A stretch of 64,000 nt of DNA from Frankia sp. QA3 (GTDB lineage Bacteria; Actinomycetota; Actinomycetes; Frankiales; Frankiaceae). Both the position numbers and the translations under genes were made by a program. The DNA is taken from NCBI RefSeq assembly GCF_000262465.1, contig NZ_CM001489.1, positions 7,172,540 through 7,236,539 on the forward strand. Reading direction: 5' to 3'. A model generated the notes under the pieces. The model was given only the letters and a program-made list of their open reading frames with translations. It had not been told where the DNA came from and made no database searches. Below, piece by piece: positions 9,386 to 57,813 of the stretch. Each line of letters opens with the position of its first letter. The stretch's first letter is position 1.

Positions 9386-12307
9386 GTGCGCGGGGAACCG
9401 GCCGATGGATCGCCGACGGTGTTCGTCAGCTACGCTGCGGCCGACCGGCCGTGGGCGGAATGGGTCGCCTGGCATCTCGTCGAATGCGGCTACGACCCCG
9501 CGCTGGAGGCCTGGCACGCGGTTCCCGGCTCGAACGGCGCCGCCTGGCTTGACCGTGCGCTCGGCGCCGAGCGGATGGTGCTGATCCTCAGCGAGGACTA
9601 TCTGGCCGAGGCCGCCGCTGTGGCCCAGTGGCAGGCCGGCTACGGGCCTGCGCCCGGACGGCTGGTGCCGGTGCGGGTCGGCCCCTGCACCCCTCGGGGC
9701 CTGCTGGCGAGCCTGATCGCGATCGACCTCGTCGGCCTGGACGAGCAGGCCGCCGCGGCGGAACTGCGCGACGGGCTGCAGGCGGCGGTCGCCGGTTCGG
9801 CGGCGCCGGGGCAGGCTCCGCTGTTTCCCGGCCCGGCCAGCTCCGCTCGGTCCCAGGCCACCCGCTCCCGCGCCACCCGCGCCCGCGCCACCCGCGCCCG
9901 CGCCACTCGGTCCAGCGCCGGCGCCGGCGGCCCCCGGGAGCTGCCGCTGGCCACCCGATTCTTCACCGGCCGCCGCGACGAGTTCGCCCGGATCCTCACG
10001 CTGGGCCGGGCGGTCGCGGGCGGCGGTCATCACGATCGGCTCCGGACGGCCGCCGACGGCCCTGCGCCGGCGGGCGCAATGGCGGACGGCGTGGTGACGG
10101 TCCTGGCCGTCGATGGGATGGCAGGCATCGGCAAGACGACTCTTGCCGTGCAGGCCGCGCACCAACTCGCCGACGACTTTCCCGACGGCTGCCTGTTTCT
10201 CGACCTGCACGGGTCGACGCCGACGGTGACGCCGATGGATCCTGCCGCCGCGCTGGAGCATCTGCTGCGCCAACTCGGCGTGCCGGGGGATGCGCTGCCG
10301 CCGTCGCAGCAGGCCCGCGCCGCGCTGTACCGCGACCGCCTCGCCGGCACCGCAACCCTGATCGTCCTGGACAACGCCGGTTCCGCCGAGCAGGTCCGAC
10401 CGCTGCTGCCGGCCGCGTCGCGGTGCCTCGTACTCGTGACCAGTCGTCGCCGGCTCGCCGCGCTGGACGAGGCCCGCCCGTTGCGTCTGGACGTCCTGCC
10501 CCGATCGGATGCGCTCGCGATGTTCGCGGCCGTCGCCGGGAAGGACCGTGTCACCGTGGAGGACCGAGCCCTCGGGGAGGATCGCTCCGGCTCCGGCTCC
10601 GGCGCCGGCGCCGGGGGCGGGGGCGGGGGCGGGGTGGCGGGGCAGGTGATCGACCTGTGCGGTCGGCTTCCGCTGGCCCTGCGGATCGCGGCCGCCCGCT
10701 TGCGGGTACGCCCCGCGTGGACGCTCGCCGACCTCGCGGATCTGCTGGCCGACCAGCACCAGCACGTCTCGCTCGCCGAGCTGGACGACGGCGAGCGCAG
10801 CGTGGCCGCCGCCTTCGCCGTGTCCTACCGGGACCTGACGCCGGACGAACAGCGGATGCTGCGAAGGCTCGGCCTGCACCCGGGCGTGGAGTTCGACGCC
10901 GCCGCCGCGGCGGCACTCACCGGCGAGCTGCCGGTGCCGGCGGCCCGACTGTGCGAGCAGCTTCTCGACGTCCACCTGCTCGCCGAGACCGCGCGGGATC
11001 GTTACCGCTTCCATGACCTCGTGCGTGTCTTCGCCCGCGAACTCGCCGTCGAGCAGGACTCGGCGGATGCCCGCCGCCAGGCGCTCACCGCCCTGTTCGA
11101 CCATTACGTCACCACCGCGGCGCTCGCCGTCCGACTGTTGTTTCCCGCCGAGGTCGCCCACCTGCCGCCGCCGCGTACGCCCTACCCCGTACCGCGCTGG
11201 ACCGACGACCCACAGGGTGCCCGGGCCTGGCTCGACCGGGAGCGCGCCAACCTCGTCCTGGTCGCGGGCCACGCCGCCGAGAACGGCTGGCCGGACGTCG
11301 CCACCGACCTGGCCGCCATCCTCTTCCGCCACCTTGACCTCGGCGCACATCTCGGCGACGCCACCGTCCTGTACGGACACGCTGGCCGGGCGGCCCGGGC
11401 CCGCGGCGACCGGGCGGGCGAGGCGCACGTGCTGGCCAGCCTCGCCGGAATTCACCGCCATCAGGGCCGCTACCAGGACGCCGCCGACGCGGCCGGCCGG
11501 GCGTTGGAACTGTTCCGCGAGGTCGCCGACGAGCCGGGCCAGGGCCGGGCGTTGACGAGCCTGGGAATCATCCGGTGGCGGCAGGGCCGCTACGACGAGG
11601 CGCTCGACCACGACCGCCGAGCCCTGGCGCTGTACGAACGTGCCGACGACCCGCGCGGCCAGGCCCGCGCGCTGGGCAACATGGCCCACGTGCACTGGCG
11701 GCAGGGCCGGTATGAGCAGGCCGTCGAGCACAACCTGCGGTCTCTGGAGCTGTACCGCCGCGGCGACGATCTGCGCGGGCAGGCGCACGCGCTGGGCAAT
11801 CTCGGCAACGTCCGCTGGTCCCGCGGTGAGACGTGCCAGGCGGCCGCCGATCACCTGGCGGCACTCGGGATCTACACCCGTCTCGACGACCGCAACGGTC
11901 AGGCCGACGCCATGACCAACCTCGGCCTGGTCCGCCAGGCGCAGGGCCACCACGATCTGGCGGGCGGACTGCACCGCCGCGCGCTCGACCTGTACGAGCG
12001 GATCGGCGACCGCAACGGCCAGGCGCGGGCCCACAACGGGCTGGGCGAACACTTCACCGCCACCGCCCGCCCCGAGCTGGCCCGCGACCATCACGCCCGC
12101 GCCCTGACTCTTACCCTCGACACCGAGGACCGCTACGAGCAGGCTCGCTCGCATGCCGGGCTCGGCCACGCCCACCACCGTCTCGGCGAGCGCAGCGCCG
12201 CCCGTCGAGAGTGGGAACACGCCCGGACTATCTACGCCCGTCTCGGCGCGCCGGAGATGGGCGAGGCCGACCAGGCCCTGCGCGACCTGACCAGGCCATC
12301 GGTGTAG
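9386..12307 (+). CDS. TIR - NB-ARC - TPR protein (STAND-type signalling/defence ATPase)
   Basis: The 973-residue protein has an N-terminal TIR domain (about 11-135, starting Thr-Val-Phe-Val-Ser-Tyr), an Arg/Ala-Thr-rich repeat linker (about 150-180), an NB-ARC NTPase (P-loop Gly-Met-Ala-Gly-Ile-Gly-Lys-Thr-Thr at about 244-252, Leu-Ile-Val-Leu-Asp-Asn Walker B near 325, Leu-Pro-Leu-Ala near 427), a winged helix, and at least six 40-residue TPR units from about 650 to the end. STAND proteins of this layout sense a trigger through the TPRs and oligomerise the TIRs, often to consume NAD+. The position of the catalytic Glu (Ser-x-Tyr-Leu-(x)8-Glu-Trp) is Gln81 here. The GTG start has no ribosome-binding site but a CAGAAT sequence lies 6 bases upstream. 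Confidence 0.9.
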   Translation: MRGEPADGSPTVFVSYAAADRPWAEWVAWHLVECGYDPALEAWHAVPGSNGAAWLDRALGAERMVLILSEDYLAEAAAVAQWQAGYGPAPGRLVPVRVGPCTPRGLLASLIAIDLVGLDEQAAAAELRDGLQAAVAGSAAPGQAPLFPGPASSARSQATRSRATRARATRARATRSSAGAGGPRELPLATRFFTGRRDEFARILTLGRAVAGGGHHDRLRTAADGPAPAGAMADGVVTVLAVDGMAGIGKTTLAVQAAHQLADDFPDGCLFLDLHGSTPTVTPMDPAAALEHLLRQLGVPGDALPPSQQARAALYRDRLAGTATLIVLDNAGSAEQVRPLLPAASRCLVLVTSRRRLAALDEARPLRLDVLPRSDALAMFAAVAGKDRVTVEDRALGEDRSGSGSGAGAGGGGGGGVAGQVIDLCGRLPLALRIAAARLRVRPAWTLADLADLLADQHQHVSLAELDDGERSVAAAFAVSYRDLTPDEQRMLRRLGLHPGVEFDAAAAAALTGELPVPAARLCEQLLDVHLLAETARDRYRFHDLVRVFARELAVEQDSADARRQALTALFDHYVTTAALAVRLLFPAEVAHLPPPRTPYPVPRWTDDPQGARAWLDRERANLVLVAGHAAENGWPDVATDLAAILFRHLDLGAHLGDATVLYGHAGRAARARGDRAGEAHVLASLAGIHRHQGRYQDAADAAGRALELFREVADEPGQGRALTSLGIIRWRQGRYDEALDHDRRALALYERADDPRGQARALGNMAHVHWRQGRYEQAVEHNLRSLELYRRGDDLRGQAHALGNLGNVRWSRGETCQAAADHLAALGIYTRLDDRNGQADAMTNLGLVRQAQGHHDLAGGLHRRALDLYERIGDRNGQARAHNGLGEHFTATARPELARDHHARALTLTLDTEDRYEQARSHAGLGHAHHRLGERSAARREWEHARTIYARLGAPEMGEADQALRDLTRPSV

Positions 12308-53625: not shown

Positions 53626-53856
53626 TCAGATGGGCAGTCCGGGCAGATTCGCGACCCACTCCCAGAAGTGCCCGGCCGGATAGGCGGCGAAGGCACCCGC
53701 TACTCCGGCGAGGACCGCGCTGCCGGCGAAGCGGGTAGCCCGGCGGGTCAGCCGGATGCCGCGGCGATCAGGATCGGGCCGGCTTGAGACGACTTCCGTG
53801 GACGGGGCCTGCTGGTCCTTCGGGTGCGAGGTGGTGACGGGGTGGGCAGTTGCCAT
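53626..53856 (-). CDS. Small single-pass membrane protein
   Basis: The 76-residue protein has a polar N-terminus of about 45 residues with several Arg, a hydrophobic helix (about 46-62) and a short aromatic tail (His-Phe-Trp-Glu-Trp-Val). The ATG at 53856 has an AAGAGG site about 8 bases upstream. It lies upstream of the sigma-CBS pair and downstream of the double-TIR gene, both on the same strand, so it could belong to either. No homology was recognised. Confidence 0.6.
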   Translation of the reverse strand: MATAHPVTTSHPKDQQAPSTEVVSSRPDPDRRGIRLTRRATRFAGSAVLAGVAGAFAAYPAGHFWEWVANLPGLPI

Positions 53857-53990: not shown

Positions 53991-56078
53991 CTACAGAGGG
54001 TCCGGGTTCCCGAAAGGTTGGCCGTCGCGCTGAACCTGTGCCCTCAGCGCCCGCGCCAGGTCGTCGAGGACCTGCTCGGCCTCCTCCGCGGGCATGGCGG
54101 CGAGCGTTCGGCCGCCGGGGTTGATGTGCTGGAAGCGGGCCAGCTCCGGGGTCTCGGTGAAAGCGCTGGCGCGCACGAGGACGGGCAGGACACGGCAGCC
54201 ACCCTCGGCGGCGGCGTCGAGCAGGCGGGGGAGCTCGACCTCGCGGATGAAGCTCGACGCGAGGAAGTCGGCGCTGACGAGGAGGATCGCGTGCCGGGCG
54301 CTGGCCAGCGCGGCGTCGATCTCGGAGCGCCAGTCGTCGCCCGGGCGGATGTCCTCATCGGACCAGACGCTGACGAGCTTGTCGCGTTCGAGGGGACTGA
54401 GGTGAACCCGTAGGCGCTTCAGCCAGTCGACGTCCTGGTGGCTGTAGCAGACGAAGGCCTGATGGCGCACAGGAGGCGGGCGTTTGCCCGCGTCCCGGAC
54501 CAGCCGTTGCCGGTCGAGCTGGCGGATGTAGAACATGAACTGTGGGTCGTCCGCGATCAACCGCCGGCGGGCGGCGTCGTAGTAGAGGATTCGGGCGATG
54601 GTCTCGTCCGCAGTCATCGCAGCCCCGACCCGGTTCGCGAAGACTTTGTCGATCTTCCTGGTCGCGCCGGTCTGCGCACGGGCGTGCTCGTACAGGTCGA
54701 GTATGCCGTCCGGGTTCTTCGCCAGGCCGAGGAGAAGGTCGATGCACACCGTCTCGTCCAGCCCGTCCAGCGAGACGAACGACTCCACCGCATCCTGGTA
54801 CTTCAGCTCGAGTTCCTCGGCGACCTGGATGCGTGCCTGCCGGACGTCGGTGCGGATCGTGATGTGATCCGGGACGGTCTCCTCGATCCGCGACAGGCCC
54901 AGCAGATGCCAGCACAGCGCCTGGGCGGTGATGAGGCTGCCCGCGGCCGCCCGCACGATCGCGGGTCGGTCGTCGAAGCTGATGTTCAGCGCTCGCTCGC
55001 CTTTGTCGATCAGCTCGATGATCTGGTCGTCGGTTGCCCGTCCCGGCCGGAAGACGCGGATCCTGTTCGCTACGTCGAAGCTCACCTTTACCAGGGAACG
55101 GGCCGTGTCCGGGATGCCCACGACCACGAGCTTGCGGGTCCGGTCGCCGGTGTCGGCAAGGTGCTTGAGGTAGTCGACCACCCTGCCCTGCTGATCCGCC
55201 GACAGGCGATGGTAGTCGTCGATAGCCACGATGCCGGTGTGGCCGGCGCCGTCGATCATCGCGTCTATCTCGGCCCGATGTTCCTCGACCCGCGCACTGA
55301 AGATGCGTGGTTCCTGCAGGCGTGCGGCGTCCTGCTCGATTGCGTGCCGGAGGAACGTGGTCTTGCCGACTCCCGACGGCCCTTCCAGCACGATGCTCAG
55401 GCCGGGTTGACGCAGAGCCATCCCGAACGCCACGAAACGTTTCGGCTGGACGAACGTGATCTCCGGTATACCCGTCGGCTGAAAGACCTCACCGACATCC
55501 CACACCCGCCCCCTGCGCGCCGCGGAAGGCAGCGGAGGAGGTTCCGAGTCCGGTTCGGAAGCCGGGAAGTCGGGCTCCGCCGTCGCGGTTCTGGTTCCGA
55601 TCGGAAAGGCCGGTGCAGAGGCTGGCTTGGCCCTGCCGCCGATCGCCGAGCGGACACCGCTGAGGAGCACTTGCCGGGCCGTCGCAGCCTCGAGGCCGAA
55701 CAGATCAAAAGACACGATCTGGCCGAGTAGGCCTGGCCGTGGGCAGTCCTCGACGCGCACCGGAACGAGCTTGCGCGTCAACCCGGTCGGATCAGCGCGG
55801 ACGGCCGCCTGCCACTCCGCTTGGCCGTAGACCGACCGGAGATAGGAATGGGACAGCACGGCGATCGTCCGGGCCGCATGCTCGATGCCATCGGCCATCG
55901 AGGCCGTCCAGTTCGAGCCGGGTACGAAATCCCAGGCCTGGATCAGGACGCGGTAGCCGGTGTCTTCAAGCTGCCACGCTAGCCACTCGGCCCAGGCCCG
56001 GTCCGCCGTTGTATAGGAGACAAAGAAATCCCAGCCATCCCCAGATCGCCCCCGGTCAACCACTCCGTCATTATGCAT
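53991..56078 (-). CDS. TIR - NTPase - TIR protein (double-TIR STAND-like)
   Basis: The 695-residue protein has an N-terminal TIR (about 15-145: Trp-Asp-Phe-Phe-Val-Ser-Tyr, Phe-Val-Pro-Gly-Ser-Asn-Trp), a Pro-rich linker, and a P-loop NTPase (Glu-Gly-Pro-Ser-Gly-Val-Gly-Lys-Thr-Thr near 233, Val-Ala-Ile-Asp-Asp-Tyr-His near 287) of the STAND/AAA type. A helical region follows, and a second, different TIR closes the protein (about 539-680: Ala-Phe-Val-Cys-Tyr-Ser-His-Gln-Asp, Ile-Arg-Pro-Gly-Asp-Asp-Trp). The expected catalytic Glu is present in both: Glu88 in Gln-Ala-Glu-Trp and Glu613 or Glu615 in the second. TIRs of this kind consume NAD+ or make signalling nucleotides. No ribosome-binding site precedes the ATG. 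Confidence 0.9.
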   Translation of the reverse strand: MHNDGVVDRGRSGDGWDFFVSYTTADRAWAEWLAWQLEDTGYRVLIQAWDFVPGSNWTASMADGIEHAARTIAVLSHSYLRSVYGQAEWQAAVRADPTGLTRKLVPVRVEDCPRPGLLGQIVSFDLFGLEAATARQVLLSGVRSAIGGRAKPASAPAFPIGTRTATAEPDFPASEPDSEPPPLPSAARRGRVWDVGEVFQPTGIPEITFVQPKRFVAFGMALRQPGLSIVLEGPSGVGKTTFLRHAIEQDAARLQEPRIFSARVEEHRAEIDAMIDGAGHTGIVAIDDYHRLSADQQGRVVDYLKHLADTGDRTRKLVVVGIPDTARSLVKVSFDVANRIRVFRPGRATDDQIIELIDKGERALNISFDDRPAIVRAAAGSLITAQALCWHLLGLSRIEETVPDHITIRTDVRQARIQVAEELELKYQDAVESFVSLDGLDETVCIDLLLGLAKNPDGILDLYEHARAQTGATRKIDKVFANRVGAAMTADETIARILYYDAARRRLIADDPQFMFYIRQLDRQRLVRDAGKRPPPVRHQAFVCYSHQDVDWLKRLRVHLSPLERDKLVSVWSDEDIRPGDDWRSEIDAALASARHAILLVSADFLASSFIREVELPRLLDAAAEGGCRVLPVLVRASAFTETPELARFQHINPGGRTLAAMPAEEAEQVLDDLARALRAQVQRDGQPFGNPDPL

Positions 56079-56284
56079 CGGCCGGTACTGCGGGTATAGC
56101 TCGGGCTACGGCTCGCGCGAGACCTCGGACAGGCTCGTATCCGGCCTCGGTTGTTTGCCGTCAAAACCACTGCCCTACCCGTAACGCTCGGCTATCCCGT
56201 GCAGGAACGCCGCCATCCCGGCCGCCGCCCCTTGCCCGCACGTGACGGGCTGGGGTGCGGGGGCCAGTCACGGCCTCTGGCCGG

Positions 56285-57813
56285 TCAGGTCGCGGCTGAG
56301 GAGGACGGGGCCGTCGGCACCGGCCCGGGTGCGGTCGTGAGCTCGCCGGTGCCCACGCCCATGTCGGTCGCGGTGGCCGACGGCGCGCGAGAGGTGCGCA
56401 ACAGGACGGCCACGGCACAGGCGGCCACGGCGGTGGCGACCGCGCCGCCGAGGAAGGCGATCTGCATGCCGTCGACGAACGCCGTCCGGGCGTGGCCGAG
56501 ATCGGTTCGCCGAGGTGGGCGGCCACGCCCAGAGAGGAGCGGGCCTTGTCGGCGAGGGCCGGCGGGAGGCTGGCGGGCAGGGCCAGGTGGCTACGGTAGG
56601 TGGAGCTGAGCAGGCTGCCGAGCACGGCGATGCCAAGCGCGCCGCCGAGCTCGCGGGACAGGTCGTTGACGGCGGAGCCGACGCCCTGCAGCGCCGGGGG
56701 CAGGCTGTCGGTGACGGCGGTGGTCGCGGGCGTCATCGCCAGGCCCATGCCGACGCCGAGCGGGAACAGCCCGGCCAGCAGCAGCCAGTACGTGCTGTCC
56801 TGGTCGAGCCGGGACAGCACGACCATCCCGGCGGTCACCAGGACCAGCCCGGCCACGCAGCAGGCGCGGGTGCCCACGGCGGCGGCGACCTTCGGGGCGA
56901 GGCGGGCGGCCGGCATCATCCCGGCCGCCATCGGCAGCACGCTGAGCGCGGCCACGAGCGCGCTGTCGCCGCGGACGAGCTGCAGGTACTGCATCGTGAC
57001 GAAGATCAGGCCGAAGAAGCCGAAGAACTGCAGCAGGATCGACACCGTGCCGGCGGCGAACGCCGGCCGGGTGAACAGCCGCGGGTCCAGCGGCGGGCCG
57101 TCCGGGGCGGCCGAGTCGGGCACGAACAGCCAGGTCCCCACCGCGGCGAGGGCGGCGAGCACGACGCCGAGCAGGAACACCGAGCGCCACGACCACGCCT
57201 GCAGCAGCAGGCCGGAGACGAGCAGGCCGACGACGGCGCTGGCCCCGGCGACGGCCGCCCACACACCGACCGCCGCCGCCCGCCGCCCCCGCGGGAACGT
57301 CCCGGTGATCGTCGACAGGGTCGCCGGCATCACCAGCGCCGCGCCGACGCCGAGGACGCAGCGCAGCCCGATCAACGCCGCCGCGCTGCTCGTGAACGGC
57401 GCCGTCGCCGACCCGGCACCGAAGATCACCAGGCCGGCCAGCAGGGCGCGGCGCCGCCCGAACCGGTCGCCCAGGGCGCCGGCCGGCAGCAGCAGCGCGG
57501 CGAAGACCAGGCTGTAGGCGTCGATGATCCATGACAGCCGGGTCTGGGAGGCGTGCGTGTCGGCGGCGATCGACGGCAGGGCGACGTTCAGCGACGACAT
57601 CGCCGAGATCACCGTGGCCAGCGCCCCGCAGGTGACCAGCAGCACCCGGGTGTGATGGCTGGCGGGCCCCGCCGTCGGCATCGGGTGCGGCGAGGTGTCG
57701 GGGAGGTCCGTCGTCGTCGCCGTCGCTGCCGCGGCCGTGCCCGTGGGCAGGTCGGCTCCGGTTCCGGGGGTGGCGGCCGGCTGGGTTTCCGTTGCCGATC
57801 CCGATGCGGTCAT
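56285..57813 (-). CDS. MFS exporter, DHA2 family, with an internal frameshift
   Basis: The protein has 14 hydrophobic segments; motif A Gly-Asp-Arg-Phe-Gly-Arg-Arg-Arg and a Ser-Ala-Met-Ser-Ser-Leu-Asn-Val-Ala-Leu-Pro start in TM1 are typical of EmrB/QacA-type exporters. After His-Leu-Gly-Glu-Pro-Ile-Ser-Ala near 56492 the frame becomes low-complexity. Adding one C there restores Phe-Val-Asp-Gly-Met-Gln-Ile-Ala-Phe-Leu, the last TM helix and a stop at 56285. Without correction the original frame runs on to 56161. It is divergent from the TetR gene, which overlaps a perfect palindrome. The start is the ATG at 57813. Confidence 0.82.

What the first reader, a model, noticed from the sequence alone, without database searches (positions are those of the whole stretch)
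53991..56078. A TIR domain at each end of one NTPase: double-TIR STAND-like protein
The N- and C-terminal TIR domains are different types and both keep the expected Glu (Glu88; Glu613 or Glu615). Most TIR-STAND proteins have one TIR as output and repeats as sensor; here no sensor repeat is visible and both ends are effectors. Two TIRs flanking an ATPase could form a self-contained NADase that oligomerises through either end, or one TIR could act on the other. It lies between two sigma-factor modules in a region with no obvious defence island.
Basis: partly seen in the sequence, partly recalled or inferred. Interest (0 to 1): 0.82.

Follow-up and report, generated by a model that had tools for sequence, protein, structure and literature searches.

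The report
AAA+ ATPase with two TIR ends
This gene makes one protein with an NAD-cleaving-type (TIR) domain at each end of an ATP-driven switch; the switch plus its C-terminal TIR is a widespread, uncharacterised gene carried by prophages and plasmids, to which this actinomycete group has added a second, exchangeable TIR, so it is probably an anti-phage suicide protein in an unusual build.

Summary
In detail: window 53991-56078 (-) is one intact 695-aa ORF with a TIR_2 domain at each end and a P-loop ATPase between. Both TIRs are real, of different subtypes, under purifying selection, and keep the Glu (E88; E615, not E613). "STAND-like" is not supported: the ATPase is AAA+ of clamp-loader/ORC/RuvB type with an invariant, arginine-finger-like Arg339.

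Relatives explain the build. The widespread form is AAA-TIR (about 500 aa, no N-terminal TIR), found in many phyla, between structural genes of prophages and in a plasmid defence island. One clade (actinomycetes, Chloroflexota) carries extra N-terminal modules. In this genome the N-TIR is a plug-in also fused to NB-ARC-TPR, WD40, Hsp90/HD-CE and DUF559 proteins. Where the standard N-TIR is present, the C-TIR was lost twice (EAD1-TIR-AAA; TIR-AAA); all 20 sampled AAA-TIR proteins without one keep it. That suggests the two TIRs are interchangeable outputs.

Most likely: an autonomous anti-phage AAA+ switch whose C-TIR is the family's usual NADase and whose N-TIR is a recruited second output. Function is inferred; nothing was assayed. 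New variant of a known kind.

The parts
53991..56078 (-). CDS, TIR-AAA+-TIR protein, 695 aa
55674..56033 (-). N-terminal TIR (residues 16-135), actinobacterial WAEWxAW type
   Evidence: Pfam TIR_2 E 2.4e-38 alone; Foldseek TIR hits
55815..55817 (-). Glu88 codon, WxxxE-type catalytic position of the N-TIR
   Evidence: E in 40 of 42 N-TIR copies
55512..55628 (-). Low-complexity linker, residues 151-189
   Evidence: pLDDT below 50; fastest-changing part, 38% identity to G002
54480..55496 (-). AAA+ ATPase with helical lid and C-terminal region (residues 195-533)
55359..55382 (-). Walker A GPSGVGKT (233-240)
   Evidence: conserved in the 32-row alignment
55215..55232 (-). Walker B IVAIDD (283-288)
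   Evidence: DD invariant in 32 rows
55062..55064 (-). Arg339, invariant, SRC-like position (putative arginine finger)
   Evidence: invariant in 32 of 32 rows; finger role inferred
54033..54467 (-). C-terminal TIR (residues 538-682), VELP type
   Evidence: Pfam TIR_2 E 1.3e-17 alone; PdTIR/AbTIR alignment
54234..54236 (-). Glu615 codon, catalytic position of the C-TIR
   Evidence: E in 7 of 8 C-TIRs of this clade, Q in Thermogemmatispora

Best explanation
An autonomous anti-phage (abortive-infection) protein. An AAA+ ATPase of the clamp-loader/ORC/RuvB group senses an infection cue by itself or through a partner, oligomerises with ATP, and brings TIR domains together so that they cleave NAD+. 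The C-terminal TIR is the usual output of this ATPase family; the N-terminal TIR is a second output recruited from the organism's large pool of exchangeable N-TIR modules and able to replace the first. Shown by sequence: domain order, motif and Glu conservation, purifying selection, the prophage and plasmid settings of AAA-TIR relatives, and two losses of the C-TIR where the N-TIR is present. Inferred: oligomerisation, NADase activity, phage trigger, cell death.
For: AAA-TIR relatives without an N-TIR occur in Pseudomonadota, Myxococcota, Acidobacteriota, Cyanobacteriota, Bacteroidota, Thermomicrobiota and Actinomycetota, as single cargo genes beside terminase, neck, tape-measure and baseplate genes in viral contigs, and on plasmids, once next to a CBASS phospholipase and further TIR genes and once near a caspase and a TIR gene. 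In all 20 AAA-TIR rows the C-TIR keeps a WxxxE-type glutamate. Both TIRs of the window protein are under purifying selection, the C-TIR most. The C-TIR was lost twice (AU test rejects a single group, p 0.0075), only in proteins with an N-TIR that keeps E88. Seven other own-genome copies of this N-TIR are fused to NB-ARC-TPR, WD40, Hsp90/HD-CE, DUF559 or nothing recognised. EAD1, present in three C-TIR-less relatives, is a predicted coupling adaptor of conflict systems (PMC7159879). The ATPase is distantly related to the PADLOC phage-defence candidate PDC-S59.
Against: No assay of any member. The trigger is unknown and no sensor domain is recognisable. The window locus is not a defence island. 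C-TIRs of the two big clades belong to different TIR subtypes (10-17% identity), so a C-TIR was swapped or gained twice, and the C-TIR of this clade need not be ancestral to the family. Thermogemmatispora has Gln at the C-TIR position. Presence of a Glu does not prove NADase activity. Some C-TIR-less relatives come from draft contigs.
Confidence: 0.55

Rival explanations
1. Division of labour: the C-TIR is the NADase and the N-TIR is a docking surface that recruits, or is recruited by, the many other N-TIR proteins of the cell (homotypic TIR-TIR coupling), comparable to what EAD1 is proposed to do in the related EAD1-TIR-AAA proteins.
For: 28 matches in this genome, most of them N-TIR copies; EAD1 and the C-TIR do not occur in the same polypeptide in the set (small numbers); two relatives have a divergent EAD1-cyclase-like-TIR neighbour; the C-TIR-less relative in G002 is followed by a TIR-NB-ARC-TPR gene.
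Against: E88 is conserved in 40 of 42 N-TIRs, which a pure scaffold would not need; proteins that lost the C-TIR would then have no output of their own.
Confidence: 0.25
2. Regulatory or developmental role: a TIR/AAA+ signalling protein of a multicellular actinomycete with no link to phage.
For: The window locus has ordinary neighbours (MFS, TetR, sigma, CBS); the gene is syntenic in a related genome.
Against: Patchy presence: 9 of 35 family genomes hold a strong match; relatives are cargo of prophages and plasmids.
Confidence: 0.12
3. Evolutionary leftover: one of the two TIRs is no longer functional and is on its way out.
For: C-TIR lost twice in close relatives.
Against: Low dN/dS in both TIRs between window and G001 (0.21, 0.12); both catalytic Glu kept.
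Confidence: 0.08

Closest known systems
AAA-TIR proteins of prophages and plasmids (phrog_6841 match; distant to PADLOC candidate PDC-S59)
   Same: Same AAA+ module with Walker A, Walker B DD and invariant Arg, followed by a TIR with a conserved Glu
   Different: No N-terminal TIR; C-TIR of another subtype (FALSFAG...WTKFE instead of VELP)
EAD1-TIR-AAA proteins of the same family
   Same: Homologous N-TIR and AAA+ module
   Different: EAD1 in front, no C-TIR
Actinobacterial TIR-NB-ARC-TPR proteins (group 6 TIR, PMC7075850)
   Same: Same type of N-terminal TIR
   Different: NB-ARC STAND ATPase and TPR sensor; no second TIR
TIR-SAVED and ThsB defence TIRs
   Same: C-TIR resembles their TIR profiles; TIR-SAVED structure 7qqk is a sequence hit
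   Different: No SAVED domain or Thoeris partner found; an AAA+ ATPase lies in the same chain

Membership tests
TIR domain (both ends) | Curated TIR profile above cut-off for each end alone | tested here: met
TIR domain (both ends) | TIR fold | tested here: met
   N-TIR: Foldseek hits nearly all TIR at the top, though the model is weak, pLDDT 55. C-TIR: only by sequence alignment to TIR structures and secondary-structure pattern
TIR NADase | Glu at the WxxxE position in each TIR | tested here: met
   E88, E615
TIR NADase | NAD+ cleavage | not testable with these tools
   needs an assay
STAND NTPase | Match to a STAND model (NACHT, NB-ARC, nSTAND) above cut-off | tested here: not met
   nSTAND5 13.9 of 34, NACHT 14.9 of 26.7, nSTAND3 11.7 of 27.2 bits; NB-ARC not listed
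STAND NTPase | Repeat sensor at the C-terminus | tested here: not met
   no repeat domain found
AAA+ ATPase (clamp-loader/ORC/RuvB group) | AAA profile above cut-off | tested here: met
   PF00004 28.2 vs 21.2 bits
AAA+ ATPase (clamp-loader/ORC/RuvB group) | Fold most like RFC, ORC, RuvB | tested here: met
   top 50 PDB hits dominated by RFC, ORC/Cdc6 and RuvB; TM over target mostly 0.3-0.6
AAA+ ATPase (clamp-loader/ORC/RuvB group) | Arginine finger | tested here: inconclusive
   Arg339 invariant in 32 rows; finger role inferred from position
Anti-phage defence system | Protection against phage | not testable with these tools
   only genomic context available
PADLOC PDC-S59 | Full-length profile match | tested here: not met
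   partial, profile 155-300 of 428, E 1.6e-11

The most novel reading that the evidence does not exclude
A one-protein relay: the two TIRs do different chemistry, one making a cyclic ADP-ribose-type signal or nucleating a TIR filament and the other executing NAD+ destruction, both gated by one AAA+ ring, so that sensor, signal and effector lie in a single chain.
Probability: 0.1. Interest if true: 0.85.

Novelty: new variant of a known kind. Interest (0 to 1): 0.52.

Why it matters
It links an odd double-TIR protein to a widespread, uncharacterised AAA-TIR gene family carried by prophages and plasmids, and supplies natural variants (AAA-TIR, TIR-AAA-TIR, TIR-AAA, EAD1-TIR-AAA) with which to ask whether TIR outputs at the two ends of an ATPase are interchangeable.

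Tried and rejected
Frameshift or assembly fusion: rejected, the order is conserved in G001. STAND membership: rejected by cut-offs and fold. Sigma-factor operon: not supported, other genes lie between in G001 and the best G002 match is weak and on another contig. Glu613 as the catalytic residue: rejected, not conserved. N-TIR relatives in viral contigs: none confirmed. AAA module in 396 genomes of the phylum: only the own genome matched at E 1e-20, with few candidates scored. E. coli relative by DNA: none. Papers naming PDC-S59: none; papers on an AAA-TIR or TIR-AAA order: none among those found in the held library.

Full report
Observation. Window 53991-56078 (-) is a single ORF of 695 aa. 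Pfam TIR_2 matches both ends independently (E 2.4e-38 and 1.3e-17) and AAA (PF00004) passes its cut-off in the middle. A genome of the same genus, G001, has the same order at 89% identity with the same MFS neighbour. Pairwise dN/dS is 0.21, 0.16 and 0.12 for N-TIR, AAA and C-TIR (the rows used were printed before that script stopped on an error in a later pair).

The TIRs. The N-TIR is of the actinobacterial WAEWxAW type, which fits the group 6 TIRs of PMC7075850 (mostly actinobacterial, often followed by TPRs); that assignment is mine. Its Glu88 is kept in 40 of 42 copies examined; the exceptions are a second TIR in this window (Gln) and the TIR-NB-ARC-TPR gene beside the G002 homologue (Val). 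The C-TIR is of VELP type; Glu615, not Glu613, aligns with the WxxxE glutamate of PdTIR and AbTIR and is kept in 7 of 8 C-TIRs of the clade. Structure models: full length mean pLDDT 71, AAA core about 90, C-TIR about 50-85, N-TIR poorer; an N-TIR model with only three sequences has pLDDT 55, but Foldseek still returns TIR structures.

The ATPase. Foldseek of the full model against the PDB is led by RFC, ORC/Cdc6 and RuvB chains; a profile of ten relatives finds RarA, VCP-like, TnsC and RuvB sequences weakly. nSTAND and NACHT models do not reach their cut-offs. The Walker A GKT/GKS, a DD Walker B and an Arg in a D-x-x-x-R segment after the sensor-1 strand are invariant in 32 aligned relatives. 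The position of that Arg resembles the SRC arginine finger of clamp loaders; the role is inferred.

Relatives. Strong matches to the AAA module occur in 9 of 35 genomes of the family. Named relatives reach Saccharothrix, Thermogemmatispora and many phyla. The 20 more distant rows are AAA-TIR of about 500 aa with no N-TIR; two further hits with interrupted frames (L069, L074) were left out. The other clade holds 12 rows: window and G001 (TIR-AAA-TIR); G008 and G006 (TIR-AAA-TIR); the own-genome paralogue (AAA-TIR, with an N-TIR stretch in another frame and a masked stretch between); Saccharothrix, whose N-terminal region scores as a ThsB-like TIR, Thermogemmatispora and G025, each with more than one TIR_2-matching stretch; and four without C-TIR. 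Of these, G002 is TIR-AAA, and G007, G010 and G018 are EAD1-TIR-AAA (EAD1 by Pfam). Each of the four ends at or just before the point where the C-TIR would begin.

C-TIR loss. On the AAA tree, G002 groups with window and G001 (100/97), and the three EAD1 forms make a separate clade. The fewest changes for the C-TIR is two, and holding the four together is rejected (p-AU 0.0075, with the group named after the tree was seen). Loss twice is the simplest reading; one loss and a regain is not excluded. All 20 sampled AAA-TIR proteins without an N-TIR keep the C-TIR.

Context. In viral contigs the AAA-TIR gene sits among terminase, neck, tape-measure and baseplate genes, as cargo does. On a Pantoea plasmid it precedes TIR genes and a CBASS phospholipase; on a Curtobacterium plasmid a caspase and a TIR gene are near. 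Seven other N-TIR proteins of the own genome carry NB-ARC-TPR, WD40, Hsp90/HD-CE, DUF559 or no recognised partner, so this N-TIR is a module used with many partners.

Mechanism, committed. ATP-driven assembly of an AAA+ ring or filament clusters TIRs, which cleave NAD+ and stop phage growth together with the cell. The C-TIR is the family's usual output; the N-TIR is a recruited second output able to replace it. Domain facts, conservation, selection and context are shown; assembly, catalysis, trigger and outcome are inferred.

Limits. The samples are small (12 rows in the relevant clade, several from drafts). No experiment was possible.

Noticed in passing
window 9386-12307 (+): TIR-NB-ARC-TPR protein (973 aa) whose TIR has Gln at the catalytic Glu position; possibly a non-enzymatic TIR.
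   Followed up: partly
window 56161-57813 (-): MFS gene upstream of the TIR gene: against the 574-aa G001 copy it lacks an internal stretch and its C-terminal part reads in another frame, which suggests decay.
   Followed up: partly
L083 11114-12733, L086 11328-12767: Divergent EAD1-cyclase-like-TIR gene beside the AAA-TIR gene in two genomes, next to a ThiC-like gene on the same side in L086 and nearby in L083.
   Followed up: partly
L092-L101: AAA-TIR genes as single cargo genes among phage structural genes; the one tested matches phrog_6841 of unknown function.
   Followed up: partly
window 53629-53856 (-): 76-aa ORF between the TIR gene and the sigma gene, no Pfam match.
   Followed up: no
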